Shown here piece by piece: positions 4,901 through 58,132 of a DNA stretch of 64,000 nt; position 1 is the first letter of the stretch, and each line of letters begins with the position of its first letter. The notes under the pieces were generated by a model. It saw nothing but the letters and a program-made list of their open reading frames with translations, was not told the DNA's origin and searched no databases. This DNA is from Salipiger mucosus DSM 16094 (GTDB lineage Bacteria; Pseudomonadota; Alphaproteobacteria; Rhodobacterales; Rhodobacteraceae). Location of the stretch: the NCBI RefSeq assembly GCF_000442255.1, contig NZ_KE557282.1:61822-125821 (forward strand). Direction: 5' to 3'. The position numbers were made by a program, and so were the translations under genes.

Positions 4901-5016
4901 AACGAGAGTGGCAGCGGCTACGAGCTTTGGGTGAACAACGGGACCGGCGCCAGCACCCAGGTTACCGAGACCTTCACGGCCCAGGGCAGCAATATCGGCG
5001 ATATGGTCGCGCTGCC
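2000..5016 (+). repeat. 22 tandem ELWxxDGT coding repeats
   Basis: The core (S/T)DGTxxGT recurs 22 times in frame, usually followed by a hydrophobic strand and LFF(T/S)AYD. Successive copies at the DNA level are diverged, so this is an old protein repeat and not a recent tandem duplication. Confidence 0.85.
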
Positions 5017-7978: not shown

Positions 7979-8005
7979 CGCCGGGACCACTTGGCAGGAC
8001 AGCAG

Positions 8006-8036
8006 AACCGGCCCCCCCGAGGGGCCGGTTTCTTCA
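8006..8036 (+). terminator. Rho-independent terminator after the giant RTX gene
   Basis: A perfect 10-bp stem (AACCGGCCCC 8006-8015 with GGGGCCGGTT 8021-8030), a 5-base loop and a short T-rich tail TTTCTTC follow. The hairpin lies between two convergent genes and could serve both strands. Confidence 0.75.
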
Positions 8037-8059
8037 TGCGGGTGCCGGTGGAGGGCCCT

Positions 8060-44210: not shown

Positions 44211-44216
44211 GTCGCC

Positions 44217-45164
44217 TCAGAGCTCCTTCCGGATGTCGACGAGTTTCAGCAGGGCCCAGACCCCGGCCAGCACGGCGGCCAGCAGGATCACGGCGTTCGC
44301 CGCGGCGAGCGGGAACTGCAGGAACTGCATCTGCGTCTGGATGACCTTGCCCACCGAGGCGATCTGCTGGCCGCCCATGATGCCGATGGTCAGGAAGTCG
44401 CCCATGACGACGGTGACGACGAAGATCGAGCCGATCAGGATGCCCGGACGGGCCAGCGGCACGATCACGAAGCGCAGCGTCTGCGCGCCCGAGGCGCCGG
44501 CGTCACGGGCGGCCTCGATCAGCGCGGGATCGATCCGCATCAGCGAGTTGAAGATCGGCACCACCATGAACAATGCGTAGAGGTGGGTAAGCGCGAGGAT
44601 CACCGCGAAATCGGAATAGAGCAGTCCTTCGAGCGGGGCGTCGATCAGGCCCATCGACATCAGGGTCTGGTTGACCAGCCCGTTGCGGCCCAGCAGCGGA
44701 ATCCACGAGATCATGCGGATCACGATCGAGGTCCAGAAGGGGATGGTGCAGAGCAGGAAGCAGATCACCTGCACCTTCAGCGTCCGGACGTGGAAGGCGA
44801 GGAAGTAGGCGATGGTGAAGCCGATCACCAGCGTCGTGAACCAGACCGAAAGGCAGAATTTCAGCGTCGAGAGGTAGGTCAGGAAGGTCGTGCAGAGCTG
44901 GGGCAGGTTGGCCACGCAGCCGTAGAAGACGTCGCCGTAGTTCTGCGCCGTGAAAGCGGGCTCGATGGAGTACTGCGTGTACTGCCAGAAGCTGACGGCG
45001 ATGGTCGCCGCGAGCGGGACCACGAAGAAGATCAGGAAGACAAGCGCCATCGGCGCCGCCTGCAGGTAGGGCGCAAGAGCGGCGCCCGCGCGGCCGGTGC
45101 CGCGGCGGCGTGCGGAGGCCCGGCCGGGCCGGGCCTCCGATGCGGTATCCAGCGCGTCCGTCAC
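44217..45164 (-). CDS. ABC transporter permease, PotB-like
   Basis: The protein has 315 residues from the GTG at 45164, which overlaps the binding-protein stop (GTGA). An Ala/Arg-rich cytoplasmic N-terminus of about 35 residues precedes six membrane segments. The EAA loop IEAARDAGASGAQTLRFVIVPLA lies near 214-236. Confidence 0.88.
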   Translation of the reverse strand: MTDALDTASEARPGRASARRRGTGRAGAALAPYLQAAPMALVFLIFFVVPLAATIAVSFWQYTQYSIEPAFTAQNYGDVFYGCVANLPQLCTTFLTYLSTLKFCLSVWFTTLVIGFTIAYFLAFHVRTLKVQVICFLLCTIPFWTSIVIRMISWIPLLGRNGLVNQTLMSMGLIDAPLEGLLYSDFAVILALTHLYALFMVVPIFNSLMRIDPALIEAARDAGASGAQTLRFVIVPLARPGILIGSIFVVTVVMGDFLTIGIMGGQQIASVGKVIQTQMQFLQFPLAAANAVILLAAVLAGVWALLKLVDIRKEL

Positions 45165-46423
45165 GCCGCGATGAACTCGTTCCACTTGCGGACCATGTAC
45201 TGGTTCTCGTCCATGACCGCGTTCCAGCAGGCGACCGAGCCCATGCGCTCCCAGTAGGAGCCGCCGTCGCGCACGGCGCCGGCCTCTTCCAGCAGGCGGC
45301 CGTCAGGGGCGTGGATGTCCTGCGCGGCTTCCTTGCCCTCGTACCAGTAATCCCACTCGTAGGCTTCCATGTACTCCTTGGCGGTGTCGAGCACGGCGGG
45401 GTAGTAGCCCTGCTTGGACAGGTGCGCGCCGGCCCAGCCCGAGAGGAACCAGTTGATGAACTCGTAGGCCGCGTCTTCCTTGCGGCCCTCGATGGTGCGC
45501 GGCAGGCCGAAGCCCGAGGCCCATGCGCGGTAGCCTTCCTTGAGCGGCTGGTAGACGCAGGGGATGCCCTGCGTGCGCACGGCGGTCACGGCGGGCGACC
45601 ACATCGACTGGATGACGACCTCGCCCGAGGCCATCAGGTTCACCGACTCCTGGAAGTTCGACCAGAACGCGCGGAACTGACCGGCGCGCTTGGCCTCGAT
45701 CAGTGCCGCGATGGTGGCGTCGATCTCTTCGCGGGTCATGTTGCCCTTGTCGCCGTAGGTGATGTCGCCGCGCGCCTCGAGCGCCATCGCCGCGTCCATG
45801 ATGCCGATGGAGGGAATGTTGAGGATCGAGGCCTTGCCGGCGAAGTCCGGGTCCAGCAGCGAGGCCCAGGACGTGATCTCCTTGTCGATCAGGTCGGGGC
45901 GGATACCCAGCGTGTCGGCGTTGTAGGTCGTCGGGATCAGCGTGATCCAGTCGGTCGGCTCGGAGGCGAAGGAGGTCGAGTCCTGCCCCTCGAGATAGAG
46001 CACCTCGTGCGGTGCGGTGCCGTCCGATCCGACGGCCTCGCCGTTCACGGTGCCCTTGGAGATGACACTCGCCAGCTCGCCGATACGCTCGATCCGGCTC
46101 GCGTCCATGCCCTTCATGTTGCCCGAGGGCACGAGGTTCGGCAGCGAGAAATACTCCGAGTCCACGAGGTCGAAGGAGTTCGGCTGGGTGATGACCCGGC
46201 GCGGCACCTCGTCGGTGTTGACGGCGATGTACTCGATGTCGATGCCGAGATCTTCCGAGGCCTTCTCGGCGATCGCGGGCGACTGGTTCACCGCGGTCGA
46301 GAGGTAGCGCAGCGTGACGCGCTCCTGTGCGTGGACGAAGGGCGCGGGCAGGGCGGCCGAACCGGCCAGCGCCGCGGCGCCCTTCAGGACGGAACGTCGG
46401 GTCGTCTTGGGAAATCGGGTCAT
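45161..46423 (-). CDS. Polyamine-type ABC transporter solute-binding protein (PotD-like), Tat signal
   Basis: The protein has 420 residues. The Tat motif is TRRSVLKGAAALAG, cleavage near HAQ-ER. The mature chain has the PotD/PotF lobes (LVDSEYFSLPNLVPSGN, PTTYNADTLGIRPDL, SMWSPAVTAVRTQGIPCVYQPLKEGY). Residues that bind spermidine in PotD cannot be confirmed, so the ligand is open. The downstream racemase and PuuE-like genes suggest a hydantoin or ureide. Confidence 0.85.
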   Translation of the reverse strand: MTRFPKTTRRSVLKGAAALAGSAALPAPFVHAQERVTLRYLSTAVNQSPAIAEKASEDLGIDIEYIAVNTDEVPRRVITQPNSFDLVDSEYFSLPNLVPSGNMKGMDASRIERIGELASVISKGTVNGEAVGSDGTAPHEVLYLEGQDSTSFASEPTDWITLIPTTYNADTLGIRPDLIDKEITSWASLLDPDFAGKASILNIPSIGIMDAAMALEARGDITYGDKGNMTREEIDATIAALIEAKRAGQFRAFWSNFQESVNLMASGEVVIQSMWSPAVTAVRTQGIPCVYQPLKEGYRAWASGFGLPRTIEGRKEDAAYEFINWFLSGWAGAHLSKQGYYPAVLDTAKEYMEAYEWDYWYEGKEAAQDIHAPDGRLLEEAGAVRDGGSYWERMGSVACWNAVMDENQYMVRKWNEFIAA

Positions 46424-46477
46424 GATCTCTCTCCTGTTGGTCTTGTTTTAATTCGTTTATTCCCGCCGCGCGGAAAT

Positions 46478-47476
46478 TCAGGCGTCGCGCGACAGTTCGT
46501 GGGCGGCCTCGGGCCGCCAGCCGATGGCGACGCTGGCGCCGGGCGAGAGCGGGCTGTCGAAGAAGGCCCGCTCGCCCATGACCGCGGTCAGCGACTCGCC
46601 CGCCTCGGTCTCGAGCCCGACGCGCACGTCGGGGCCCCGGTATTCGATCTCGCTCACCTGCGCGCGGCGGCGCGCCCCGGTGGCATCCCCGGCGGGCAGG
46701 ACGTCAATATCGTCCGCGCGCAGGGTGATGGTCCGGCCGTTGTCCTCGATGATGTTGTGACCGCCGATGAAGCGGGCCACGAAAGGCGTGCGCGGCGCGT
46801 TGTAGATCTCGCGCGGGGGCGCGGCCTGCGCGATCCGGCCGTCGTTCATGACGACCACGAGATCGGCCAGCGCCATCGCCTCTTCCTGGCTGTGCGTGAC
46901 GTGGATGAAGGTGATGCCCAGCTCGGCCTGGATGCGCCGGAGCTCCGAGCGCATGCGCACCCGCAGGAACGGGTCGAGCGCCGAAAGCGGCTCGTCGAGC
47001 AGCAAAACCGAGGGTTCGGTCATCAACGCCCGCGCGAGTGCGACGCGCTGCTGCTGCCCGCCGGAAAGCTGGGTGGGCGTGCGGTCGGCGTACTCGGCCA
47101 TCGACACGAGGTCGAGCATCCGCGCCGCGCGTTCCAGCCGTTCCTTGCGACCGACGCCCTTCATGCGCAGCGAGAATGCGACGTTCTCGGCGACGCTCAG
47201 GTGCGGGAAGAGCGCGTAGCTCTGGAACATCATCGCGGTGCCGCGTTCGGCCGGCGGGTCGTCGTTCACCACGCGCGAGCCGATCATGATGTCGCCGTCG
47301 GTGACATCCTCGTGGCCCGCGATCATCCTGAGGGTCGAGGACTTGCCGCAGCCCGAGGGGCCGAGAAGGCAGCAATAGCTGCCCGCCTTGATCTTCAGGT
47401 TGATGGCATCGACCGCCAGCGCGCCGTCATAGCGTTTGGTGACGGAAGCCAGTTCCACCATCTGTGCGTCGGACAT
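46478..47476 (-). CDS. ABC transporter ATPase, PotA-like
   Basis: The protein has 332 residues. Walker A GPSGCGKSST, Q-loop MMFQSYALFPHLSVAENV, signature LSGGQQQRVALARA, Walker B VLLLDEPLSALDP and switch HVTHSQEEAM are all present, followed by an intact TOBE domain. It is first in the operon, before the binding-protein gene (54-base gap). Confidence 0.9.
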   Translation of the reverse strand: MSDAQMVELASVTKRYDGALAVDAINLKIKAGSYCCLLGPSGCGKSSTLRMIAGHEDVTDGDIMIGSRVVNDDPPAERGTAMMFQSYALFPHLSVAENVAFSLRMKGVGRKERLERAARMLDLVSMAEYADRTPTQLSGGQQQRVALARALMTEPSVLLLDEPLSALDPFLRVRMRSELRRIQAELGITFIHVTHSQEEAMALADLVVVMNDGRIAQAAPPREIYNAPRTPFVARFIGGHNIIEDNGRTITLRADDIDVLPAGDATGARRRAQVSEIEYRGPDVRVGLETEAGESLTAVMGERAFFDSPLSPGASVAIGWRPEAAHELSRDA

Positions 47477-47706: not shown

Positions 47707-48201
47707 TCAGCCGGCCGCTGCCGTGAGGCGTTCGAACCGGCCGCCGCAGAACAGCAGCGGCGCGAGCGCCTCCTTGCAGTCGAAGTCGTGCACCCGTCCG
47801 ATGAAGAGGACATGGTCGCCGACCTCGATCTCGCGTTCGACCTGCGTGAGAAAGACCGCCTGCGCGTCGGGCAGGACGGGCAGCCCGTTGCGCGAGCCGC
47901 GCGCCGTGCGCAGCTTCGGGTCGGGCTTTCCGGCAAAGTGCATCGCCACGTCCTCCATGTGGTCGGACAGGACGTTCACGGCATAGCGGCCGGAGCGCCG
48001 GACGAGCCCCAGCATCCTGCATCCCTTGTCGAGCGAGATGGTCAGCAGCGGCGGGTCGAGCGAGACGGACATGAAGGCATTGGCCGTCATCCCGTGGTCG
48101 CCTTCCTCGGTCCGCGTCGTGATGACGGTGACGCCGGTGGCGAAGCTGCCGCAGGCGCGGCGCAGCTCGCGCGGGTCGATGGGGGTGTCAGTGTCGGACA
48201 T
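47707..48201 (-). CDS. Flavin reductase, HpaC-like component
   Basis: The protein has 164 residues of the flavin reductase-like split barrel. Motifs: GSFATGVTVITT, TANAFMSVSLDPPLLTISLDK with the flavin-binding Ser/Asn, RYAVNVLSD, and the last strand HVLFIGRVHDFD. Such proteins use NAD(P)H to reduce FAD or FMN that diffuses to a monooxygenase. It is third in the operon after the HpaB-type oxygenase and an FAD synthetase. GAGGAGG precedes ATG 48201, which lies inside the end of the FAD synthetase gene (14-base overlap). Confidence 0.88.
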   Translation of the reverse strand: MSDTDTPIDPRELRRACGSFATGVTVITTRTEEGDHGMTANAFMSVSLDPPLLTISLDKGCRMLGLVRRSGRYAVNVLSDHMEDVAMHFAGKPDPKLRTARGSRNGLPVLPDAQAVFLTQVEREIEVGDHVLFIGRVHDFDCKEALAPLLFCGGRFERLTAAAG

Positions 48202-48817
48202 GGGGGTCCTCCTCGTATCTCGTGTCATGCATCTGGAGCCGCCCGGCCAGCAGGGCGGCCGGCCCGGGGCAGGACTGCAGCACGGCCGCGCCCGCGATGT
48301 CCCCGGCGCGGCGCAGGGCGCGGATGCGGGTCGAGGACACGGGCTCGCCGCCCGCGCAGACCACGGGCCGTGCGAGGCGCGTCTCGAAGCGTGCCGCCAG
48401 CAGCTCGACGTCGCCCGTCTGTTTCGCGCCGAAGCGGAAGTCCGCGCCGACGTGAACCCTTCGCGGTCCGATCCGCGCGAGGTCGCCCAGAAAGGCCCCG
48501 GCCGAGCGCGCGCAGTAACTTGCGGTGAAGGAGGCCACGGCGATCAGGTCCGGCCCCAGCCGCGCGATCCGCGCCAGCTTGTCGTCCAGCGTCGAGAGCC
48601 GCGCGGCGCGGCCGAAGAAGACCTTGGGCGGCGGGTCGAAGGTCCAGACGATGGCCGGGACGCCTTCGGCCCGCGCATCGCGCACCGCCTCGGAAATGAG
48701 TTGCTGGTGGCCCTGGTGCACGCCGTCGAAGGCGCCGATGGCGACGACCGAGGCGGGCAGCGACAGGTCGCGGTCGCTGACGACAAGGGTCGGTCTGCCC
48801 GTGAACTGGAAGGACAT
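48188..48817 (-). CDS. FAD synthetase (RibF-type FMN adenylyltransferase) lacking the riboflavin kinase domain
   Basis: The protein has 209 residues. The nucleotidyltransferase signature IGAFDGVHQGHQ (HxGH at 34-37) starts the fold. FTASYCARSAGAFL, the GADFRFGAKQTGD loop and the VSSTRIRALRRAGDI motif follow, all typical of RibF module 1. Full RibF proteins have about 310 residues with a C-terminal riboflavin kinase; here the chain stops after the adenylyltransferase. It should make FAD from FMN and ATP, perhaps to feed the FADH2-using oxygenase encoded just upstream. GGAGG precedes ATG 48817. Confidence 0.82.
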   Translation of the reverse strand: MSFQFTGRPTLVVSDRDLSLPASVVAIGAFDGVHQGHQQLISEAVRDARAEGVPAIVWTFDPPPKVFFGRAARLSTLDDKLARIARLGPDLIAVASFTASYCARSAGAFLGDLARIGPRRVHVGADFRFGAKQTGDVELLAARFETRLARPVVCAGGEPVSSTRIRALRRAGDIAGAAVLQSCPGPAALLAGRLQMHDTRYEEDPHVRH

Positions 48818-48847
48818 GGAACGCCTCCGCATCTGGTGGAAGGTGGT

Positions 48848-48877
48848 CCGCCCGGGCAAGGCCTCTCGCCCGGGCGG
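48848..48877 (-). terminator. Intercistronic hairpin after the HpaB-type gene
   Basis: CCGCCCGGGC (48848-48857) pairs perfectly with GCCCGGGCGG (48868-48877), 10-base loop, placed 6 bases after the oxygenase stop and before the FAD synthetase start. It probably protects the oxygenase mRNA segment. Confidence 0.5.
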
Positions 48878-48883
48878 CGCGGA

Positions 48884-50440
48884 TCAACCCTGGAAGCCGC
48901 CGCTCAGGCGGTTGATGTCCCAGGGGTTCACCATGTCCGGCACGGTCCAGCCGCCGAGGTCGTATTCGGCCATGTAGTCCTCGACGAGCTGCTGCATCAT
49001 CTCGTACTCGCCGGTGGCCTGCGCCGTCAGCATGGTCTCGATGCGGATGTTCTCGTAGTTGCCGGCGTAGTTGCTCTCGTAGAGTTCGTGACGCCCGCCG
49101 AACTCCGAGCCCATGGCGTCCCAGAGCAGCTTGAGCAGCTTCACCCGGTCGACCGCCAGCATGCCGTTCGAGCCGCGCACGAAGCGGTCGAGGTAGGGCC
49201 GGATCTCGTCCGAGTTGAAGTCGAGCGCCGAGGACGGCAGGTAGATGAGCCCCGAGGCCACGTGCCGCTCGATCAGCTCCTTGATCCGGCTGTAGGCCAT
49301 GGGCGCGAAGACCCGGTAGGCGAGGCCGTAGTTGATGTTGGGCAGGTTGAAGCCGTCGGTGCCCTCCCACGGGACGGGCGATTTCACCATCGCGTCCGAG
49401 ATGCCCCAGAAGAGGTTGCGCCATGCGATGACCTCGCCCACCGCGGTCTGCGGGCCGCGGAAGCCGCCGGCGCCCGTCGCCTCGAGCGCCTTCGAGAAGA
49501 GCCCCGAGATGAAGTCGAGCTTCACCGCCAGCCGGGTGACGCCGTGCAGCGTGAAGCGCGGCACGAAGCCCGAGGCCGGGAAGAAGGCGTTGATCTTCTC
49601 GACGTCGCCGTAAACGAAGATGTTCTCCCAGGGCACCAGCACCTTGTCGAAGACGAGGATCGAGTCGTTTTCGTCCAGGCGCGAGGAGAGCGGGTAGTCG
49701 AAGGGCGTGCCCATGACCGTCGCGTTGAGCTCGTAGCTGGCGCGCGAGATCAGCTTGACGCCCTCGGCCCCCATCGGCGCGGTGAAGATCAGCGCGAACT
49801 TCTTCTCCTTGATGGGGATGCCGTAGTGGGCGATGAAGTTGTAGTGCGTGAGGGCCGAGCCCGTCGCGACCACCTTGGCGCCCGAGACGATCAGCCCCGC
49901 GTCGGTTTCTTTCTCCACCTGCATGAAGACGTCGCCCGTCTCCTCGATGGGCAGGTGCCGGTCGATCGGCGGGTTGACGATGGCGTGGTTCCAGTAGTCG
50001 AGCCGCTCCTGCGTGCGGGCATACCAGGCGCGGGCGTTGTCCGCGTATTCCCCGTAGAAGCCCGCGTTCGCGCCCAGCGTGCCCAGGAAGGCCGCCTTGT
50101 AGTCGGGCGCGCGGCCCATCCAGCCATTGGCGACGCGCTGCGTGTCGGCGATGGCGTCGCGGCCCGCGACAAGGTCCTCGGCGCTCTTCGATCCCTTGAA
50201 GAAGGGATGCGTCCACCCGCCCGAACCGGTGTCGGTGGTGCGGCCGATCTCGTCCTTCTTCGCGTGCAGCCGGTCGTACCAGCGCGCCACCATGCGCGAC
50301 GAGTTGCGGAACGCCGGATGCGTGGTCACGTCCTTGACGCGCTCGCCGTGGACATAGACGCAGCGGCCGTCCTGCAGGCTCTCGAGATATTCCGCGCCCG
50401 TGTAGGGGGCGGTGACATCGGTATCGATGCGGTCCTTCAT
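48884..50440 (-). CDS. FADH2-dependent aromatic monooxygenase, HpaB family (4-hydroxyphenylacetate 3-hydroxylase type)
   Basis: The protein has 518 residues, the normal length. Family motifs: [22 protein letters not shown] at the N-terminus, [59 protein letters not shown], and the C-terminal helical domain. HpaB-type oxygenases use free FADH2 from a separate reductase and put a hydroxyl ortho to an existing phenol OH; relatives act on 4-hydroxyphenylacetate, phenol, chlorophenols or resorcinol. The same operon encodes a reductase and FAD synthetase. The divergent IclR gene and the palindrome at 50504 suggest IclR control. The phenolic substrate is not fixed by sequence. Confidence 0.88.
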
Positions 50441-50503
50441 GGGGTCCTCCCGTTTTTCGGTCTCCTCGAGGCCAAGCTTGCGGCGCGATCCGAAATATCG
50501 AAA

Positions 50504-50519
50504 GGTATCGAATGATACT
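50504..50519. promoter_or_regulatory. IclR-type palindrome, copy 1 (imperfect)
   Basis: GGTATCG-AA-TGATACT, two mismatches from the perfect dyad seen at 53402 and 53436. It lies in the 121-base gap between the HpaB-type and IclR genes, in position to regulate both. Confidence 0.55.
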
Positions 50520-50561
50520 GAGAGTTTTTCCGGTTATTCCGAAAATGCGGAGTGGGGCGCG

Positions 50562-51293
50562 ATGAAAACCATCCGGAAGGTCGGCGATGTGCTGCGTCTG
50601 TTCACGGCCGAGACGCCCGAACACAGCCTGAGCGGGCTGGCGCGCGCGCTCGGGGCCTCGCCCAGCGGGACCTTCGACGTGGCGGACGGGCTGACGGAGA
50701 TCGGCCTGCTGGCGCGGGTGGGGCGCGGGCGCTACCGGTTGGGGCCGCTCGTGGCGACGCTGAACGCGGTGCTCGAGGACACCGCGCCGGTGGCCGAGGC
50801 CGCGCGCGAGGTCATGGACCGGCTCGCCGGCGAATACGGGGAGACGCTGCATCTGACCCAGCAGGACGACGGGCGTCTGCTGGTGCTGGCCACGCGGATC
50901 GGGCGGCGCACGCTGACGGTGACGCGGGACGCGCTGACGCCCGGTCTTGCGCTGCACGAAAGCGCGCCGGGCTGCCTGCACCTGGCCGAGATGGAGCCCG
51001 CGCAGCGCGAGGCCTACTGGCGCCGAGCGGACGCGGCGGCACGGCGTGTCCCCATGCCCTCGGACGAGGCCTTGGCGCAGATGCGGCGCGAGGGCTATGC
51101 CGCCGGGCCGCTGGCCCGCGACGACGACGTGGTCTTCACCGCGGGCGCGATCCGCAACCACGCGGGGCTTAGCGCCGGGGTCCTCTCCATCGCGGTCCCG
51201 GCCAGCCGCCACGCGCGCGAGCCGCGCGCGTTCCGGAGTGTGACGCTGCGCGCGGCGGGCGACGTGTCGCGGTCGCTGGGCTACACCGGCTGA
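50562..51293 (+). CDS. IclR-family transcriptional regulator
   Basis: The protein has 243 residues. The N-terminal winged helix is IRKVGDVLRLFTAETPEHSLSGLARALGASPSGTFDVADGLTEIGLL. The effector domain (about 80-240) contains GETLHLTQQDDGRLLVLATRIG and AGLSAGVLSIAVPAS. IclR proteins such as PcaU and PobR control aromatic catabolism. This one is divergent from the HpaB-type operon. A repeated palindrome near four promoters of the region is its likely site. ATG 50562 has GTGGGG nearby. The last 13 bases overlap the convergent BKACE gene. Confidence 0.88.
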   Translation: MKTIRKVGDVLRLFTAETPEHSLSGLARALGASPSGTFDVADGLTEIGLLARVGRGRYRLGPLVATLNAVLEDTAPVAEAAREVMDRLAGEYGETLHLTQQDDGRLLVLATRIGRRTLTVTRDALTPGLALHESAPGCLHLAEMEPAQREAYWRRADAAARRVPMPSDEALAQMRREGYAAGPLARDDDVVFTAGAIRNHAGLSAGVLSIAVPASRHAREPRAFRSVTLRAAGDVSRSLGYTG

Positions 51294-52120
51294 TTGCGCA
51301 GCCCCAGGATCGCGCGGGCTTCGGCGGGCGAGGCGATGCTGCGCCCGTGGCGCCGCGCGATTTCGGCGGCGCGGGCCACAAGCGCGGCATTCGACGGCGC
51401 GAGACTGTTGCGGTCGAGCCGGATGTTGTCCTCGAGCCCTGTGCGCAGGTGTCCGCCGGCCCCGGCGGCCCAGTCGTTCACCTCGGCCTGGTGCCGGCCG
51501 ATCCCGGCGGCGCACCACGGGGCCGCCTCTCCGAAAAGCGTGCGGACCGTCTCGACATAGACGTCGAAGACGCGCCGGTCGGCCGGCATCGCGTTCTTCA
51601 CGCCCATGACGACCTGCACGTAGGGCGTGCCCGCGATCTCTCCGCGATCCGCCATCAGCCGCGCCTGGTAGATGTGGCTGAGATCGAAGGCCTCGATCTC
51701 GGGCTTGACCCCGTGGGCCAGCATCTCGGCCGCGAGCCATTGCACGAGGTCCGGCGGGTTCTCGTAGACCCGCGTGGGGAAGTTGTTCGACCCGACCGAG
51801 AGCGAGGCCATGTCCGGGCCGAGCGGCAGCATCCCGCCGCGCGTCCTGCCCGCCCCCGAGCGCCCGCCGGTCGACAGCTGGACGATCATGCCGCGGCAGG
51901 CGGCCTCGATCCCGGCCTTGAGCTCGGCAAAGCGGCCGGGGTCGGAGGTCGGCCGGCCTTCGTCGTCGCGGACGTGGCAATGCGCGATGGTGGCCCCGGC
52001 CTCGAAGGCCTCGCGCGTGCTTTGGACCTGTTCCTCGACGGTGATCGGCACCGCCGGGTTGTCGGCCTTGGTCGGGACCGATCCGGTGATCGCGACGCAG
52101 ATGATGCAGGGCGTGCTCAT
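51281..52120 (-). CDS. BKACE-family beta-keto acid cleavage enzyme (DUF849)
   Basis: The protein has 279 residues. The TIM-barrel zinc enzyme signature is clear: H47 and H49 in TIAHCHVRDDEGRP, VQLSTGGRSG, SLSVGSNNFP, EAFDLSHIYQARLM, and the late motif HLRTGLEDNIRLDR with the third metal ligand region. BKACE enzymes react a beta-keto acid with acetyl-CoA to give acetoacetate and a shortened acyl-CoA; beta-ketoadipate is among known substrates of the family. Next to ortho-cleavage genes it could replace the CoA-transferase/thiolase steps of the beta-ketoadipate pathway (inference). Confidence 0.88.
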   Translation of the reverse strand: MSTPCIICVAITGSVPTKADNPAVPITVEEQVQSTREAFEAGATIAHCHVRDDEGRPTSDPGRFAELKAGIEAACRGMIVQLSTGGRSGAGRTRGGMLPLGPDMASLSVGSNNFPTRVYENPPDLVQWLAAEMLAHGVKPEIEAFDLSHIYQARLMADRGEIAGTPYVQVVMGVKNAMPADRRVFDVYVETVRTLFGEAAPWCAAGIGRHQAEVNDWAAGAGGHLRTGLEDNIRLDRNSLAPSNAALVARAAEIARRHGRSIASPAEARAILGLRNQPV

Positions 52121-52953
52121 CGCATCTTGTCCAGCGCCTCGAGGAAGAAGGGCCGGAAGCCCTCGGGGTGCTCGCTCATCGGGAAATGCCCGAGCTCGTC
52201 CATGACCGCCAGCGTCGCGCCCGGTATGGCCTCGGCCGTACGGCGGGCGTCCTCGGGCGTACAGGTCAGGTCGTAGGCGCCGACGATGATGTGCACCGGC
52301 GTTCGGGCGGTATCGATCTGCCCGAGCCGCCCGATCAGGCTGTCGTCCTGCGTGTAGAAGCTCAGGTCGCCGCGGAAGACGCCGGGCCCCGACTGCATGA
52401 ACATCCAGAGCGTGTTCCAGCGCTCGGCCGCCGGGGCGTGGGGCGAGATGTTGGCCGAGACGAGTGCCGCGCCCATCTCGCCGCCGTGGGCGTCGGGCCG
52501 GTGGAACCAGTCGATGTCGTACCAGGCCGGCTGGAAATCCGAGGCCTCGATGGCGATGAACCCGGCGAACCTCTCGGGGTGCAGCGCCGCGAGCTGGAGC
52601 GCGATGCGCCCGCCCATCGAGCAGCCGGCAAGCACCGGCGCCTCCAGCTCAAGCGCGTCGATGAGCGCGAGGACGGTCTCGATGTAGGCCTCGGTCGTGA
52701 GCAGGTATTCCTCGGTCTCCGATCCCTCGGGCGGCAGCGATTTGCCGTGCCAGGGCATGTCGAAGGCGATCAGGCGGTGCCCCCCGGTCACGTCGGCGTC
52801 GTTCATCAGGTGCCGCCACTGCGCGCTGTGGGCGCCGGCGGTGTGCAGGCAGAGGACCGGCCGGCCGCTGCCCGCTTCCTCGAAATAGATCCTGTGCGGG
52901 CGCCCCCCAAGCTGCAGGGTGACGTAGCGCCCGGTGATCGGCTCGATGCTCAT
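52117..52953 (-). CDS. Alpha/beta-fold hydrolase
   Basis: The protein has 278 residues. The nucleophile elbow is AGCSMGGRIALQLA (Ser near 117), the acid is probably in IIVGAYDLTCTPED and the base His in DELGHFPMSEHPEG. LCLHTAGAHSAQWRHLM supplies the oxyanion hole. FDMPWHGKSLPP is typical of the epoxide hydrolase/C-C hydrolase/enol-lactonase group. In this cluster an enol-lactonase (PcaD-like) or ester-cleaving role is plausible, but sequence alone does not decide. It overlaps both the SCP2-like and the BKACE genes by four bases. Confidence 0.83.
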   Translation of the reverse strand: MSIEPITGRYVTLQLGGRPHRIYFEEAGSGRPVLCLHTAGAHSAQWRHLMNDADVTGGHRLIAFDMPWHGKSLPPEGSETEEYLLTTEAYIETVLALIDALELEAPVLAGCSMGGRIALQLAALHPERFAGFIAIEASDFQPAWYDIDWFHRPDAHGGEMGAALVSANISPHAPAAERWNTLWMFMQSGPGVFRGDLSFYTQDDSLIGRLGQIDTARTPVHIIVGAYDLTCTPEDARRTAEAIPGATLAVMDELGHFPMSEHPEGFRPFFLEALDKMR

Positions 52954-53336
52954 GCGCTCTCTCCCGTGACGCGGGCGCCGCGCGGCAGCGCAAGCACCTC
53001 CTTGAAGAAGCGCAGGTTCTTCACCAGCGCGAGGATATCGCCGAGGATTTCCGCGCGGCCGGTCTTCACGAGGCCGAAGATGTCGTGGAATCCGGGTTCG
53101 GGCAGGAGCTCCCAGAACTTCGCGATGGCCTCGCCGTCGGTGGCGATGGCGAAGCGGTAGGGGATCTTCTTCGAGGGTCCGGGCAGCACCGCCTCGATCC
53201 GCCCGCGGTCGAACACGAGATAGTGTTCCACGTCGTCCACGCGGATCAGCACCGTTTCGGAAAAGAGCCGCCCCAGCCTCAACAGGTGCGGCCGCGCCGC
53301 GACCTGCGCGGGCAGGCGTTCGATCTCGCTCAGCAT
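52950..53336 (-). CDS. Small SCP2-like protein of unknown function
   Basis: The protein has 128 residues. The pattern HYLVFDRGRIEAVLPGP, then PYRFAIATDGEAIAKFWEL, then FHDIFGLVKTGRAEILGDILALVKNL looks like the SCP2/sterol-carrier fold, with a beta sheet followed by a helix that gates a hydrophobic tunnel. No catalytic residues are recognised. It is first in the operon SCP2-like, hydrolase, BKACE, directly after the double palindrome. It may bind a hydrophobic pathway compound. Confidence 0.6.
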   Translation of the reverse strand: MLSEIERLPAQVAARPHLLRLGRLFSETVLIRVDDVEHYLVFDRGRIEAVLPGPSKKIPYRFAIATDGEAIAKFWELLPEPGFHDIFGLVKTGRAEILGDILALVKNLRFFKEVLALPRGARVTGESA

Positions 53337-53401
53337 GGTCTCTTCCTCCGTCGTTCGCCGCGGAGGATGGGAAGCGGGCGCGCGGCGGACAATGCCGGGC
53401 A

Positions 53402-53419
53402 GGGTATCGGGCGATACCC
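53402..53419. promoter_or_regulatory. IclR-type palindrome, copy 2 (perfect)
   Basis: GGGTATCG-GG-CGATACCC, a perfect 8-base dyad between the SCP2-like and dioxygenase promoters. Its centre is 33 bases from copy 3, about three helical turns, so both face the same side of the DNA. Confidence 0.65.
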
Positions 53420-53435
53420 GCCGCTCCACGGGCCG

Positions 53436-53451
53436 GGTATCGAGCGATACC
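53436..53451. promoter_or_regulatory. IclR-type palindrome, copy 3 (perfect)
   Basis: GGTATCG-AG-CGATACC, a perfect 7-base dyad, nearer to the dioxygenase start at 53533. Confidence 0.65.
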
Positions 53452-53532
53452 TAATGCGACATTGGCGCGGCGCGGTTGTTGCGCAACGCTTGGACCCGAG
53501 GAGACATCAGCCGAAACGGGGAGGAGACCGAC

Positions 53533-54408
53533 ATGGCGAAGATCACGCTCGACAACATCACCGACGAGGTCGTGGCCGCGCTTGGCCAGAACGGAGAGAT
53601 CGACGCGCGTCAGCGCGAGATCATGACATCGCTGATCACGCACCTGCACGGCTTCTGCAAGGACGTGAAGCTGCAGCACCACGAGTTCATCGAGGCCTGC
53701 CAGTACCTCGCCCGCGCCGGGGCGGTCTGCGACGGCGGCCGGCAGGAATTCATCCTGCTGGGCGACATCCTGGGCGTCGAGGTGCTGGTCGACATGCTTT
53801 CGAACCCGGTCACCGGGACCGAGAGCGAGTCGACCGTGCTCGGCCCGTTCTACCGCGAGAACCCGCCGGTGCTGCCCAAGGGCGCCTCGACGGTCCTCAA
53901 GGAATACCCCGACCAGGAGACGGTCTACTTCGAGGGCCAGGTCCGCGACGCCGATGGCACGCCGCTGGCCGGGGTGACCATCGACGTCTGGGAAGACGCG
54001 CCGAACGGGCTCTACGAGAACCACGACCCCGACCAGCCCGAGTTCAACCTGCGCGGCCGCTTCGAGACCGACGAGAACGGGCACTACGCCTTCCGCGCCC
54101 TGCGCCCGGTCGACTACCCGATCCCCGACAACGAGACGGCGGGCGAGCTTCTGCGCTTCATGGGCCACCACCCGATGCGCCCCGGGCACATGCACTTCAT
54201 CCTGTCCAAGGAGGGCTTCCGTCCGCTCATCAGCCAGATCTACGACAGCCGGTCGGAGTATCTCGAGAACGACAGCGTGTTTGCGGTCAAGGACAGCCTC
54301 GTGGGCGAGTTCCGCAAGGCGGGCCCGGACCTCGACACCGACTTGCACGTGAGCTTCGACTTCGTGCTCAAGCGCGACGCCGCCAACGAGCGGATTGCCG
54401 CGGAATAA
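53533..54408 (+). CDS. Intradiol ring-cleavage dioxygenase (hydroxyquinol/catechol 1,2-dioxygenase type)
   Basis: The protein has 291 residues. An N-terminal helical linker domain (REIMTSLITHLHGF, RQEFILLGDILGVEVLVDML) as in catechol and hydroxyquinol 1,2-dioxygenases is followed by the iron-binding barrel. Fe(III) ligands: Tyr in LGPFYREN, Tyr in ALRPVDYPIPDN and the two His of RPGHMHFIL. It cleaves the ring between the two hydroxyls using O2. Length and linker motifs are closer to hydroxyquinol 1,2-dioxygenase, but the cycloisomerase nearby would fit a catechol-derived muconate, so both are possible. A good terminator follows. Confidence 0.88.
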   Translation: MAKITLDNITDEVVAALGQNGEIDARQREIMTSLITHLHGFCKDVKLQHHEFIEACQYLARAGAVCDGGRQEFILLGDILGVEVLVDMLSNPVTGTESESTVLGPFYRENPPVLPKGASTVLKEYPDQETVYFEGQVRDADGTPLAGVTIDVWEDAPNGLYENHDPDQPEFNLRGRFETDENGHYAFRALRPVDYPIPDNETAGELLRFMGHHPMRPGHMHFILSKEGFRPLISQIYDSRSEYLENDSVFAVKDSLVGEFRKAGPDLDTDLHVSFDFVLKRDAANERIAAE

Positions 54409-54435
54409 CCCCGCCCTCCCTGGCGAATCGACTGG

Positions 54436-54463
54436 AAGCCTCCCCCGGGGAGGCTTTCTTTTT
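54436..54463 (+). terminator. Rho-independent terminator after the dioxygenase gene
   Basis: AAGCCTCC (54436-54443) pairs with GGAGGCTT (54449-54456), 5-base CCCGG loop, followed by TCTTTTT. Confidence 0.8.
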
Positions 54464-54508
54464 GACGGCCCGCATGCGTCTACTGGCACCCGGAGGAGAC
54501 GGGGACGG

Positions 54509-55399
54509 ATGAACCTCAAGCAGTTGACCTATTTCATCGCCGTGGCCGAGGAACTGCATTTCGGCCGCGCAGCCGAGCGGCTGGGCATGGCGCAGCCGCC
54601 GCTCTCGCGCCAGATCAAGCAGATCGAGGACGACCTCGGCGCGGTGCTGTTCAACCGCGGGCGCCGCGCGGTCAGCCTGACCCAGGCGGGCGAGCGCCTG
54701 CTCGAGCGCGGCCGCACGCTGATGCGTGACATCGACGACATGAAGCTCGAGGTCCGCCGCCTTGGCGAGGGGGCCGAGGGACGGCTGCGGATCGGGTTCG
54801 TGGGCTCCTCGACCTTCGGCATCCTGCCGACCATCGTGAAGTCGTTCCGGGCGAACTTCCCGGACGTGATCCTGACGCTCTCGCCGATGAACAACGCGCA
54901 GCTCTACCGCCGGCTGGTCGGGCGCGAGATCGACGTGGCCTTCGCCCGCCCGGCGCTGACCGACGCCGAGTTCCGGACGGTGCAGCTGGGCGACGAGCCG
55001 TTGGTGGCCGCGACGCCCGACAGCGTCGCCACCGCGCGGCCCGGGCGCGTCACCCTCGACGAGTTGCGCGGCATGAACTTCATTCTCTACCCCGAGTATC
55101 CGCGCCCCTCCTACGCCGACCTCGTGCTCGACAGCTGCGCCGCGCACGGGCTCGACCCCGACCGCAAGCTCTTCACGATGGACCTGCAGACCGCGCTGCG
55201 CCTCGTCGCGATCGGCGAGGGCGTCTGCATCGTGCCGGCGTCGGTCGGCTCGGCGCAGCGCAACGGGATCCGCTTCAACGCGATCGAGCCCGAGATCGGG
55301 CAGACCTCGCTCGCGCTCAACTACCGGCTGGACGAGCAGGGCCCGCACGTCCGGGCCTTCGTGAAGATCGCGCAGGCCGTGGCGCGCCGGTCGTTCTGA
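54509..55399 (+). CDS. LysR-family transcriptional regulator (CatR/BenM-like)
   Basis: The protein has 296 residues. The HTH is MNLKQLTYFIAVAEELHFGRAAERLGMAQPPLSRQIKQIEDDLG, very close to the CatR/BenM/CbnR group, where QPPLSRQI is typical. The effector domain starts GRLRIGFVGSSTFGILP. LysR proteins of this group usually respond to cis,cis-muconate. It is convergent to the muconate cycloisomerase gene, 3 bases away, not divergent as in classical catR-catB. CGGAGGAGACGGGG precedes the ATG. Confidence 0.88.
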   Translation: MNLKQLTYFIAVAEELHFGRAAERLGMAQPPLSRQIKQIEDDLGAVLFNRGRRAVSLTQAGERLLERGRTLMRDIDDMKLEVRRLGEGAEGRLRIGFVGSSTFGILPTIVKSFRANFPDVILTLSPMNNAQLYRRLVGREIDVAFARPALTDAEFRTVQLGDEPLVAATPDSVATARPGRVTLDELRGMNFILYPEYPRPSYADLVLDSCAAHGLDPDRKLFTMDLQTALRLVAIGEGVCIVPASVGSAQRNGIRFNAIEPEIGQTSLALNYRLDEQGPHVRAFVKIAQAVARRSF

Positions 55400-55402
55400 G
55401 GC

Positions 55403-56554
55403 TCAGCCGGGTAGCGCGATGCCCGGCACACCCGGCTGGCGGTCGCGGCGATACTGGGCGACGACGTCCGGGTTCAGCGTGACGCCAAGGCCCGGGCCAT
55501 CGGGCAGGTGCACGGCGAAATCGGCGTAGCGGATGGGCCGCTCCAGCAGGTCGACCTTCATCAGCAGCGGGCCGAAAAGCTCGGTCCCCCAGGCGAGCGA
55601 CGGCAGCGTCGAGAAGAGTTGCAGCGCGGCGGCGGTGCCCACGCCGGCCTCGAGCATGGTGCCCGCGTAGAGGCCGATGCCCGCCGCGCGGGCGATGGCG
55701 GCGACCTCGGCGCCCTTCTTCAGGCCGCCCGACTGGGCGATCTTGACCGCAAACACATCGGCCGCGCGGTCGGTCGCGCAGGCCATCGCGTCCTCGGGGC
55801 CCTGCAGCGCCTCGTCGGCCATGACGGCGATCTCGTAGCCGTCGGTCAGGGACTTGAGCTGCCGCATGTGTCGCGCGCCGATGGGTTGCTCGACGAGGTC
55901 GACGCCGATCTCCTGCAGCCCGCGCAGCCCCCAGCGCGCCTCGTCGAGCGACCAGGCCTGGTTCACGTCGACCCGGATCGAGGCGCGATCGCCCACCGCG
56001 TCGCGGATCGCGGCGACATGGGCGATGTCCTCGCGCACGGGGCGCTTGCCGATCTTGAGCTTGAAGATGTCGTGGCGGCGCGTCTCGAGCATCTCCCGCG
56101 CCTCGAGGATGTCGGTCTCGGAATTGCCCGAGGCCAGCGTCCAGGCGACCGGCATCGCGGTGCGCACCGGTCCGCCGAAGAGATGCGCGACCGAAACGCC
56201 CAGCCGCCGCGCGAGCCCGTCCCAGAGCGCCGTCTCGACCGCGCAGCGCGCGATCGGGTTGCCCTTCACGGCGCGGCTCATGATGTCGGCGGCGGTGTTG
56301 ATCCGGTCGCCGTCCAGCCCGTCGAGCACCGGCGCGATGTAGGTGTCGATGGCGACCTTGATGCTCTCGGGGCTCTCGGCGCCGTAGCTCATCCCGCCGA
56401 TCGCGGTGCCCTCGCCAAGGCCGACGGAGCCGTCCGAGAACCGGATTTCGACGAGCACGATGGACTGGACCATCATCGTCGCCATCGACAGGACGTGTCC
56501 GCGAATGGTCGGCAGGTCCACGAGCGTGGTTTCGATGCGGTCGATCTTGGGCAA
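55403..56554 (-). CDS. catB: Muconate cycloisomerase (enolase superfamily)
   Basis: The protein has 383 residues. Catalytic and metal residues sit in order: KxK at K165/K167 in IFKLKIGK, metal ligands D195 (DVNQAW), E221 (VEQPI) and D246 (MADEAL), and K270 in VFAVKIAQSGG. GGMSYGAESPESI and WALWDGLAR-type sequence (ALWDGLARRLGV) are typical of the muconate/chloromuconate branch. It converts cis,cis-muconate to muconolactone. A one-mismatch IclR-type palindrome lies about 75 bases upstream of the start, linking it to the dioxygenase regulon. Confidence 0.88.
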   Translation of the reverse strand: MPKIDRIETTLVDLPTIRGHVLSMATMMVQSIVLVEIRFSDGSVGLGEGTAIGGMSYGAESPESIKVAIDTYIAPVLDGLDGDRINTAADIMSRAVKGNPIARCAVETALWDGLARRLGVSVAHLFGGPVRTAMPVAWTLASGNSETDILEAREMLETRRHDIFKLKIGKRPVREDIAHVAAIRDAVGDRASIRVDVNQAWSLDEARWGLRGLQEIGVDLVEQPIGARHMRQLKSLTDGYEIAVMADEALQGPEDAMACATDRAADVFAVKIAQSGGLKKGAEVAAIARAAGIGLYAGTMLEAGVGTAAALQLFSTLPSLAWGTELFGPLLMKVDLLERPIRYADFAVHLPDGPGLGVTLNPDVVAQYRRDRQPGVPGIALPG

Positions 56555-56626
56555 GGCGGTCTCCGGTGCACGAGGTCATCTCGTGCGATTTTCCGGCCTT
56601 GCGCTGCCCAAGTCCAATACTCGGAC

Positions 56627-56642
56627 GGTCTCGGACGATACC
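56627..56642. promoter_or_regulatory. IclR-type palindrome, copy 4 (one mismatch)
   Basis: GGTCTCG-GA-CGATACC lies 73 bases upstream of the cycloisomerase ATG (minus strand, 56554) and 17 bases from the end of the next gene's stop, in a gap of only 105 bases. Confidence 0.55.
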
Positions 56643-56659: not shown

Positions 56660-57748
56660 TCAGACCTCGCGGGTCAGGAAACGCCCGCGCTCGCGGTCCC
56701 ATCCGATCCGGACCGCCGCGCCGACGGCAGGGATCGGGCCGCTCCTGACGCGCAGGATGACCTCCTTGCCGGAGGCGGTCGTCACCAGCAGCCGGGTCTC
56801 GGCCCCGGCGTAGATCGTGTCGGTGACAGTGCCCGAGATCGGACCGTCGGGATCGATGCGCATCATCTCGGGCCGCAGCACGAGCGAGCCGCGACCGGCG
56901 GCGTCGCGTCCCGGCGGAAGGGGCAGGCGGCCGTCCGGGGTGTCCAGTGCGCCGTCCGAGACCTGGCCCTCGAAGATATTGGAAATGCCGATGAAATCCG
57001 CCACGAAGACCGAGTTCGGCGTGTCGTACATCTCCGATGGCGTGCCGGCCTGCACGATGCGTCCGTCGCGCATCAGGCAGATGCGCTCGGAGAGGGCGAG
57101 CGCCTCTTCCTGGTCGTGGGTCACGAAGATGATGGTCGTGTCGGTCTCGCGGTGGATGCGCTTGATCTCCATCTGCATCTGTTCGCGCAGCTTGCGGTCG
57201 AGCGCCGAGAGCGGCTCGTCCATCAGGATGATCGAGGGATCGTAGACGAGGCAGCGTGCCAGGGCGACGCGCTGCTGCTGGCCGCCGGACAGCTCGTTCG
57301 GGAAGCGGTTGCCCGCGTGGCCGAGGCCCACCGTCTCGAGCGAGCGGCCGACGCGCTGTGCGATCTCCCTGGCGCCGATGCCGCGCACGTTGAGCGGATA
57401 GCCGATGTTCTCGGCCACGGTCAGGTGCGGAAAGAGCGCGTAGTTCTGGAAGACCACGCCGATGCCGCGCTTCTCGGGGCGGGTGTGCGTGTGATCCGTG
57501 CCGTCGATCATGAGCTGTCCGCGCGAGGGCAGATTCAGCCCGCAGATGGTCTGCAGCAGCGTCGTCTTGCCCGAACCCGAGGGGCCCAGCAGCGTGAGGA
57601 ACTCGCCCTCGTGCACGTCGAGGTCGACGCGGTCGAGCGCCACCGTCTCGCCGTAGTAGCGCGACAGGTCGCGCGCCGAGAGCTTGATCGTGCGCGCGCT
57701 TTGCGGGGCGACCACCGTCTCGGGCTGCAATTTGGTCTGCGGCTGCAT
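56660..57748 (-). CDS. ABC transporter ATPase, PotA-like
   Basis: The protein has 362 residues. Walker A GPSGSGKTT, Q-loop VVFQNYALFPHLTVAENI, signature LSGGQQQRVALARC, Walker B IILMDEPLSALD and switch FVTHDQEEAL are present; the TOBE domain is intact to the end. ATG 57748 was chosen because GGAGGTG lies 7 bases upstream; an in-frame ATG at 57838 would add an unrelated 30-residue leader. It is divergent from the binding protein and fused permease that it must serve. Confidence 0.9.
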   Translation of the reverse strand: MQPQTKLQPETVVAPQSARTIKLSARDLSRYYGETVALDRVDLDVHEGEFLTLLGPSGSGKTTLLQTICGLNLPSRGQLMIDGTDHTHTRPEKRGIGVVFQNYALFPHLTVAENIGYPLNVRGIGAREIAQRVGRSLETVGLGHAGNRFPNELSGGQQQRVALARCLVYDPSIILMDEPLSALDRKLREQMQMEIKRIHRETDTTIIFVTHDQEEALALSERICLMRDGRIVQAGTPSEMYDTPNSVFVADFIGISNIFEGQVSDGALDTPDGRLPLPPGRDAAGRGSLVLRPEMMRIDPDGPISGTVTDTIYAGAETRLLVTTASGKEVILRVRSGPIPAVGAAVRIGWDRERGRFLTREV

Positions 57749-58132
57749 GGCGCCACCTCCTGTCTGGTCGAGTCCCGGCCGCACGCCGGGACATCCGGCC
57801 GAAGCCGACGATCGTGGGTTTCCCGGGATTAAGCGCAAATCCGGGCTGCCCGTAAAATAGGGAAATGAGAGTTCCGGCTTAGCCGGAGCCTAATCCGATC
57901 ATCGCAGGTTAGGATCTGCCTAATCAGTGGTGCTGTTTTTGCTACTTTACGCTGCATCGCGGCAATGCTTGCTTTCGGCACAGGTCGTCGCCACGGCCGT
58001 TCACCGCCGCATCCGGTTCGCCCCTGCAGGCCTGCCCATCCCGGGCCTGCCCGGCTGCAGCGTCCAGAGAAGCCGGTCCAACCGGACGACATGATTTGAG
58101 CCCGGATCCCACCAACACGGAGTGACCCCACC
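57749..58132. promoter_or_regulatory. Divergent promoter region of the third polyamine-type system
   Basis: The 384-base gap has no gene. It holds two dyads with identical spacing 30 bases apart (TTAGC-N5-CCTAA at 57879 and TTAGG-N5-CCTAA at 57909) and an AT-rich stretch near 57925-57955 that could be a core promoter. Confidence 0.45.
57879..57923. promoter_or_regulatory. Tandem TTAGS-N5-CCTAA dyads, candidate operators
   Basis: TTAGC-CGGAG-CCTAA (57879-57893) and TTAGG-ATCTG-CCTAA (57909-57923). Centres are 30 bases apart, close to three helical turns. The cognate regulator is not obvious in the window. Confidence 0.5.

What the first reader, a model, noticed from the sequence alone, without database searches (positions are those of the whole stretch)
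50504..56642. Four-copy palindrome GGTATCG-N2-CGATACC defines an aromatic-catabolism regulon
Seen: near-identical 16-18 base dyads at 50504-50519 (two mismatches), 53402-53419 (perfect), 53436-53451 (perfect) and 56627-56642 (one mismatch). All lie in short gaps in front of the HpaB/IclR pair, the SCP2-hydrolase-BKACE operon/dioxygenase pair, and the cycloisomerase gene. Known: IclR-family activators or repressors of aromatic pathways bind such palindromes. Inference: the IclR protein at 50562 controls all of them, so the genes from 47707 to 56554 form one pathway, although a LysR gene also sits there. The two perfect copies are 33 bases apart, about three turns.
Basis: partly seen in the sequence, partly recalled or inferred. 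Interest (0 to 1): 0.7.

Follow-up and report, generated by a model that had tools for sequence, protein, structure and literature searches.

The report
LysR operator regulon, not IclR

Summary
The four dyads exist as described. In the 5.69 Mb genome both exact copies and the only one-mismatch copy lie in this cluster; the fourth (50504) is one of 27 two-mismatch places and stands only by conservation. Footprinting shows the core is GGTAT-N6-ATACC (mostly AGACC at the cycloisomerase). At <=1 mismatch it lies upstream of 45 of 47 dioxygenase, 33 of 40 SCP2-like, 25 of 25 HpaB and 6 of 6 close cycloisomerase genes, against 0 of 25, 0 of 15 and 0 of 40 in three control gene classes. An IclR ortholog is in 3 of 33 dioxygenase-cluster genomes, a LysR ortholog in 33 of 33, and LysR matches in 18 of 18 IclR-bearing genomes. 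Half-sites match the published CatR/ClcR consensus AkACC-N5-GGTAT. The HpaB-IclR gap holds a second dyad, TTTCCGG-N5-CCGGAAA, exactly 23 bp away in 20 of 20 distinct gaps of the closer IclR type and in 0 of 5 of a remoter type: the likely IclR operator. One regulon: supported. IclR as binder of the dyad: not supported. All binding is inferred.

The parts
47707..48228 (-). flavin reductase of the two-component monooxygenase
   Evidence: PF01613 134 bits
48188..48859 (-). FAD synthetase (RibF-like)
   Evidence: PF06574 115 bits
48884..50440 (-). HpaB-type FADH2 monooxygenase, probably makes the catechol (substrate inferred)
   Evidence: PF11794/PF03241; TIGR02310 694 bits, under its 885 cut-off
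50504..50519 (.). dyad 1, GGTAT-N6-ATACT, in the HpaB-IclR gap (63 bp before HpaB, 42 bp before IclR)
   Evidence: dyad in 25 of 25 HpaB upstream regions of relatives
50527..50545 (.). second, different dyad TTTCCGG-N5-CCGAAAA: proposed IclR operator, start 23 bp after the start of dyad 1
   Evidence: 20 of 20 non-identical gaps with the closer IclR type (window included) keep it at exactly 23 bp; 0 of 5 with the remoter type
50562..51293 (+). IclR-family regulator
   Evidence: PF01614 42 bits, PF09339 26 bits
51281..52120 (-). BKACE, 3-oxoadipate:acetyl-CoA acetyltransferase
   Evidence: NF053568 466 bits over cut-off 350
52117..52950 (-). alpha/beta hydrolase, enol-lactonase-like
   Evidence: PF00561; TIGR02427 76 bits, under cut-off
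52950..53336 (-). small SCP2-fold protein
   Evidence: no Pfam hit; AlphaFold2 best model pLDDT 87, the other four 56-66; Foldseek best UbiJ-SCP2 6h6o E 5e-6, also SCP2 2cx7
53390..53418 (-). dyad 2 plus ABS-like element: GGTATCGCCCGATACC-CTGCCC-GGCATTG, SCP2 promoter
   Evidence: exact match to the composite pattern in own genome
53436..53464 (+). dyad 3 plus ABS-like element: GGTATCGAGCGATACC-TAATGC-GACATTG, dioxygenase promoter
   Evidence: exact match to the composite pattern in own genome
53533..54408 (+). intradiol (catechol 1,2-type) dioxygenase
   Evidence: PF00775/PF04444
54509..55399 (+). LysR-family regulator, CatR/BenM-like: proposed binder of all four dyads
   Evidence: PF03466/PF00126 (longer ORF); matches BenM (residues 1-277) and CatM (1-250) structures; match in 33 of 33 and 18 of 18 genomes
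55403..56554 (-). muconate cycloisomerase
   Evidence: TIGR02534 493 bits over cut-off 335
56614..56642 (-). dyad 4 plus ABS-like element: GGTATCGTCCGAGACC-GTCCGA-GTATTGG, cycloisomerase promoter (contains a G-N11-A, as in CatR sites)
   Evidence: one mismatch to the composite pattern; conserved in close orthologs

Best explanation
The dyads are operators of the LysR-type regulator at 54509-55399, a CatR/BenM-like protein. Proposed mechanism: a LysR tetramer sits on GGTAT-N6-AKACC (recognition/repression site) upstream of each promoter and, with a pathway intermediate such as cis,cis-muconate, also contacts the half-site just downstream (N6-GGCATTGG, activation site), turning on SCP2-hydrolase-BKACE, dioxygenase-lysR and the cycloisomerase. 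The HpaB-IclR gap has the same LysR dyad plus a separate IclR dyad at a rigid 23 bp, so the monooxygenase that feeds the pathway is probably under joint LysR and IclR control. Shown: sites, conservation, spacings, co-occurrence. Inferred: who binds, the inducer, activation or repression, the HpaB substrate.
For: (1) LysR ortholog in 33 of 33 dioxygenase-cluster genomes at E<=1e-70 and LysR match in 18 of 18 IclR-locus genomes at E<=1e-30, unlinked in some; IclR ortholog (E<=1e-30) in 3 of 33. (2) Dyad <=1 mismatch in 45/47 dioxygenase, 33/40 SCP2, 25/25 HpaB, 6/6 cycloisomerase (>=60% identity) upstream regions; controls 0/25 BKACE, 0/15 flavin reductase, 0/40 hydrolase. (3) Spacer 6 in 39 of 41 dioxygenase gaps (63 sites; shuffles mean 0.14, largest 2), every other spacer 0-15 in at most 2 of 41. 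(4) ATTG/ATGG exactly 9 bases after ATACC in 30 of 38 dioxygenase sites: an RBS+ABS layout like that reported for CatR (passages). (5) Half-sites ATACC/AGACC and GGTAT match the reported CatR/ClcR consensus AkACC-N5-GGTAT (PMC6449761, passages). The same paper predicts a COG3246 (BKACE-type) gene in a CatM/BenM regulon (passages). (6) QPPLSR in the recognition region is invariant in 49 distinct LysR orthologs of 43-69% identity and present in BenM, whose site is ATAC-N7-GTAT (PMC6628147, passages). (7) Dyad kept at HpaB without an adjacent IclR in L124 and L189, whose HpaB gaps lack the IclR dyad. (8) The IclR dyad is lost in the remoter IclR type while the LysR dyad stays.
Against: No binding data. 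The palindrome GGTAT-N6-ATACC does not fit the T-N11-A rule of LysR sites (outer T to A is N10); only the cycloisomerase site contains a G-N11-A. The best NCBIfam model for this LysR is AlsR (228 bits, cut-off 430), ahead of BenM (154) and CatM (128), all under cut-off; the best solved match is an unnamed LysR regulator, 7w06, ahead of BenM. The ATTG element is missing at HpaB in IclR clusters and at the dioxygenase promoters of L121, L122, L123, L136 and L140, with LysR of about 47% identity. Four IclR loci (L141, L150, L151, L152) show no close LysR beside them, so it would act in trans there. In G825 the LysR match is weak or in pieces. No IclR-bearing genome without LysR was found, so the reverse test could not be made. 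L126 (LysR 49%) has only a two-mismatch site. An unlinked third regulator is not excluded. The gap sequences come from related genomes and are not independent.
Confidence: 0.82

Rival explanations
1. IclR (50562) binds all four dyads and is the sole regulon master.
For: A dyad (<=1 mismatch) lies in the HpaB-IclR gap in 27 of 27 rows examined, 25 of them non-identical, window included.
Against: Dyads conserved in 29 of 30 dioxygenase-cluster genomes without an IclR ortholog; IclR has a different conserved dyad in its own gap; HpaB keeps the GGTAT dyad without an adjacent IclR in L124 and L189.
Confidence: 0.06
2. Divided labour: LysR binds dyads 2-4, while in the HpaB-IclR gap one IclR oligomer covers both the GGTAT dyad and TTTCCGG-N5-CCGGAAA, which explains the rigid 23-bp spacing.
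For: Spacing 23 bp in 20 of 20 distinct gaps while flank lengths vary; no ABS-like ATTG at HpaB in IclR clusters; some IclR loci have no close LysR beside them.
Against: The two dyads are unrelated in sequence; the GGTAT dyad persists at HpaB without an adjacent IclR (L124, L189) and with the remoter IclR type that lacks TTTCCGG; a LysR match is in 18 of 18 of these genomes.
Confidence: 0.12
3. A third, unlinked regulator common to these genomes binds the dyad.
For: The N6 spacing is unusual for LysR proteins; LysR is sometimes unlinked.
Against: The half-sites match the CatR/BenM vocabulary; a one-mismatch dyad lies before lysR itself in four Thioclava loci. Other regulators of these genomes were not surveyed.
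Confidence: 0.08

Closest known systems
CatR/ClcR operators (AkACC-N5-GGTAT RBS plus ABS)
   Same: half-sites ATACC/AGACC and GGTAT; G/T choice at the second base; recognition site followed by a downstream element; catechol ortho-cleavage genes (PMC6449761, PMC9705993 and PMC5002191, passages)
   Different: the strongest palindrome here is GGTAT-N6-ATACC, in the inverse order and with an even spacer; the downstream AkACC-to-GGCAT spacing is 6, not 5, except in the AGACC-N5-AGTAT register at the window's cycloisomerase
BenM/CatM of Acinetobacter baylyi (ATAC-N7-GTAT)
   Same: LysR regulator of ben/cat genes, sequence match, same AQPPLSRQI stretch as BenM; several sites per promoter (PMC6628147, passages); a BKACE-type gene predicted in a CatM/BenM regulon (PMC6449761, passages)
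   Different: dyad geometry; the lysR gene here follows the dioxygenase instead of being divergent; family models under cut-off
PcaR/PcaU/PobR and other IclR-family regulators
   Same: IclR fold next to an aromatic pathway; TIGR02431 32 bits, BhcR model 45 bits
   Different: far under those cut-offs (284.75 and 350); the proposed operator TTTCCGG-N5-CCGGAAA lies at the HpaB-IclR gap
Dual control of aph phenol genes by AphS/AphR with the LysR AphT (Comamonas)
   Same: upper-pathway hydroxylase and lower pathway under different but overlapping regulators (PMC6449761, passages)
   Different: partners are GntR and NtrC families there, IclR here; no fixed 23-bp phasing in the passages read

Membership tests
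CatR/BenM-type LysR regulon | LysR HTH and substrate-binding domains in the regulator | tested here: met
   PF00126 and PF03466
CatR/BenM-type LysR regulon | named family model (BenM, CatM) passed | tested here: not met
   BenM 154 bits (cut-off 600), CatM 128 (580); best is AlsR 228 (430)
CatR/BenM-type LysR regulon | recognition region like BenM | tested here: met
   AQPPLSRQI in the BenM alignment; QPPLSR invariant in 49 orthologs
CatR/BenM-type LysR regulon | T-N11-A dyad (AkACC-N5-GGTAT) | tested here: inconclusive
   main dyad GGTAT-N6-ATACC does not fit T-N11-A; the window's cycloisomerase site has G-N11-A; half-site letters agree
CatR/BenM-type LysR regulon | recognition site followed by an activation site | tested here: met
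   as sequence only: ATTG/ATGG at a fixed offset in 30 of 38 dioxygenase sites; not at HpaB in IclR clusters
CatR/BenM-type LysR regulon | regulator gene divergent from a target | tested here: not met
   lysR lies downstream of the dioxygenase on the same strand
CatR/BenM-type LysR regulon | muconate-dependent binding and activation | not testable with these tools
   needs protein
IclR regulon on the GGTAT dyad | dyad co-occurs with the IclR gene | tested here: not met
   IclR ortholog in 3 of 33 genomes, dyad <=1 mismatch in 32 of 33
IclR operator TTTCCGG-N5-CCGGAAA | conserved palindrome in the divergent gap of the iclR gene | tested here: met
   20 of 20 distinct closer-type gaps, <=3 mismatches; 0 of 5 remoter-type gaps
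IclR operator TTTCCGG-N5-CCGGAAA | bound by IclR | not testable with these tools
   needs protein

The most novel reading that the evidence does not exclude
The HpaB promoter is a composite operator on which a LysR and an IclR protein must dock side by side at an exact 23-bp register, making the oxygenase that feeds the pathway respond jointly to substrate (IclR) and a lower-pathway intermediate (LysR); and GGTAT-N6-ATACC is a LysR recognition geometry outside the T-N11-A rule, spread over Rhodobacterales and some Hyphomicrobiales and Sphingomonadales.
Probability: 0.45. Interest if true: 0.55.

Novelty: new variant of a known kind. Interest (0 to 1): 0.42.

Why it matters
It turns a four-copy motif into a testable two-regulator circuit, reassigns it from IclR to LysR, and gives a footprint that predicts catechol regulons in related genomes. 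The fixed 23-bp pairing of two unrelated dyads would let one ask how two regulators are phased on one promoter. For the pathway, it ties a BKACE of the 3-oxoadipate type and an SCP2-fold protein to a catechol cluster in a genome (97.5% complete) without a detectable CatC.

Tried and rejected
Tried and rejected. (a) IclR orthologs in 100 relatives: 0 of 100 at E<=1e-20, so footprinting was done through the dioxygenase. (b) The SCP2-like protein as a probe: 22 of 385 genomes, the window's own included; in the 20 neighbourhoods fetched there was no copy of the original dyad at 0-1 mismatch and no dioxygenase near the window's; no use for footprinting. (c) C9:215150, a close look-alike of the 50504 site, lies inside an ORF. 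(d) T-N11-A as explanation of the main dyad: does not fit. (e) The whole-genome composite scan is uninformative at 2-3 mismatches (295 forward matches in all, control 92); at 0-1 mismatch there are 6 places, 3 in the cluster; the other three were not opened. (f) My script query named RibF (48225-48860) was in the wrong frame; the FAD synthetase is 48188-48859. No conclusion rests on that query. (g) Literature: GGTAT-N6-ATACC, GTAT-N6-ATAC and TTTCCGG-N5-CCGGAAA in those spellings were not found (its one paper held another term). Listings (15 of 28 papers shown; 15 of 34; 15 of 216; 13 of 13; 4 of 4; 7 of 7; 10 of 26) showed no report of this regulon in titles and abstract starts. That is not proof of absence.

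Rows dropped before counts: identical upstream regions, regions under 150 bases, matches starting after query residue 16, and dioxygenase matches under 58% identity (L128-L131, which show no dyad). The window itself and L189 are not in those counts. The 35-60% cycloisomerase group (1 of 22) was counted apart and not de-duplicated; lysR gave 7 of 50. Near-identical relatives (for example L136/L154, L138/L148, L147/L153, L151/L152) were kept. Of the plasmid hits (92 records for IclR; 554 for the dioxygenase) I opened nine, and one more later.
Full report
Observation. In the whole genome (5,689,389 bases, 30 contigs) the two exact copies and the only one-mismatch copy lie in this cluster. At two mismatches there are 27 places, one being 50504; the reversed-pattern control gave 4 places at <=2 mismatches. 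Four of the other 26 two-mismatch places were opened and all four lie in ORFs. So three sites are specific by themselves and the fourth needs outside support.

Genes. Flavin reductase, FAD synthetase and HpaB-type monooxygenase (-), IclR (+), BKACE, alpha/beta hydrolase and SCP2-fold protein (-), intradiol dioxygenase and LysR (+), muconate cycloisomerase (-) (fold of the SCP2-like protein). BKACE passes the cut-off of the 3-oxoadipate:acetyl-CoA model and the cycloisomerase that of the muconate family. From established pathway knowledge this fits catechol to muconate to muconolactone to 3-oxoadipate to succinyl-CoA and acetoacetate; that HpaB makes the catechol is inference.

Footprinting. 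A search of 390 genomes of the order with the dioxygenase gave 34 genomes with 58-100% identity, the window's own among them, apart from the next hits at about 46% or less. I fetched the other 33 neighbourhoods plus 4 of the next group, nine plasmid regions, and later 18 named loci through an IclR alignment and one more plasmid. A dyad at <=1 mismatch is in 33 of 33 distinct divergent SCP2-dioxygenase gaps, window included, twice in 29. One copy lies 66-106 bases before the SCP2 start (66-81 in 29 of 33). The copy nearest the dioxygenase lies 93-120 bases before it in most gaps, 73-81 in four (the window 81) and 140 in L114. Their mutual distance varies from 33 to 91. Each copy therefore seems to serve its own promoter, and the three-turn spacing of the window is not a rule. 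The conserved core is GGTAT-N6-ATACC: spacer 6 in 39 of 41 dioxygenase gaps, no other spacer from 0 to 15 in more than 2. Counts upstream of each gene class, with controls, are: dioxygenase 45/47, SCP2 33/40, HpaB 25/25, cycloisomerase of at least 60% identity 6/6, against BKACE 0/25, flavin reductase 0/15, hydrolase 0/40, remoter cycloisomerases 1/22, lysR 7/50. The two dioxygenase misses are L124 and L126; the seven SCP2 misses are L112, L125-L127, L155, L156 and L158.

Which regulator. In the 33 cluster genomes an IclR ortholog at E<=1e-30 exists in 3 (G525, G773, G782; weaker IclR-family matches at E<=1e-5 in 17 more) and a LysR ortholog at E<=1e-70 in all 33, unlinked in G458. The dyad (<=1 mismatch) is present in 32 of 33, the exception G745 having a two-mismatch form. 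In 18 genomes with the IclR, all 18 have a LysR match at E<=1e-30, including those whose HpaB-IclR locus has no close LysR beside it. In G825 the match is weak or in pieces, and in G832 and G828 the best match is partial, at or near a contig end. Two HpaB genes without IclR beside them, L124 (whose genome G661 has no IclR match at E<=1e-5) and L189 (genome not searched), keep the GGTAT dyad and lack the second dyad in that gap. These data disfavour IclR as the binder and point to LysR.

Likeness to known sites. PMC6449761 (passages) gives the CatR/ClcR consensus as AkACC-N5-GGTAT plus an adjacent activation site; PMC9705993 (passages) reports a T/G-N11-A motif in CatR sites and an extended footprint with muconate; PMC5002191 (passages) gives the catBC site as tcAgA-n9-TATgG. 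Here the SCP2 and dioxygenase sites have ATACC and 5 of 6 close cycloisomerase sites, and the window's, have AGACC, the same T/G choice. After ATACC, ATTG or ATGG follows at exactly 9 bases in 30 of 38 dioxygenase sites. The LysR matches BenM and CatM over most of its length, though the best solved match is 7w06 and the best NCBIfam model is AlsR, all family models being under cut-off. It differs in having GGTAT-N6-ATACC as main palindrome, which is not T-N11-A. That paper also predicts a BKACE-type gene (COG3246) in a CatM/BenM regulon, so the link of BKACE to a catechol LysR is not new.

The IclR operator. In the HpaB-IclR gap a second dyad TTTCCGG-N5-CCGGAAA (window 50527-50545, one mismatch; up to three in L122) starts exactly 23 bases after the first in 20 of 20 distinct gaps: the window and 19 with IclR of 43-62% identity. 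The distance to HpaB varies from 63 to 106 and that to IclR from 16 to 35. In 5 distinct gaps with IclR of 31-36% identity it is missing at <=3 mismatches while the GGTAT dyad stays. In the own genome a pattern for this dyad matches this place and one other (C2:345489) exactly and a third with one mismatch; the reversed control gave 2. I read this as the IclR operator, locked beside the LysR site.

Verdict. One regulon: yes. IclR master: no, LysR is the better candidate. The promoter of hpaB is probably under joint control. The kind is known; the geometry and the fixed pairing are a new variant so far as the listings show.

Noticed in passing
window 52117-53336; loci L142, L144, L145, L149, L189: The own genome has no match to muconolactone isomerase CatC (PF02426). 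In the fetched stretches, 39 dioxygenase loci carry the SCP2-fold gene and 5 loci carry CatC, with no overlap seen (tblastn with one CatC query; L189 judged from its annotation). The SCP2-fold/hydrolase pair may replace CatC; untested.
   Followed up: partly
window 52117-53336; loci L022-L064: The SCP2-fold and hydrolase genes form a pair also outside such clusters: 22 of 385 genomes of the class (window's own included) have the SCP2-like protein, with the hydrolase next to it in 23 of 23 loci opened.
   Followed up: partly
window 47707-56554: The cluster looks mosaic: LysR and cycloisomerase resemble dioxygenase clusters without HpaB (63-69% and 62-72%; benzoate genes are annotated beside the four plasmid cases), HpaB resembles IclR-type clusters (up to 90%); the IclR is absent from 100 relatives.
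   Followed up: partly
L134 (Phaeobacter inhibens pP88_c) 2831-9861: Two successive copies of the SCP2/hydrolase/dioxygenase module, each with its own pair of dyads.
   Followed up: no
L143, L146, L147, L153 (Thioclava), about 63 bases before lysR; L144, L145 about 102 bases before lysR: A dyad (one mismatch; none in L145) lies before a lysR gene that does not follow the dioxygenase directly, suggesting autoregulation.
   Followed up: no
window 43335-47476 and 56660-57838: ABC transporter genes flank the cluster; no dyad within two mismatches lies in front of them.
   Followed up: no
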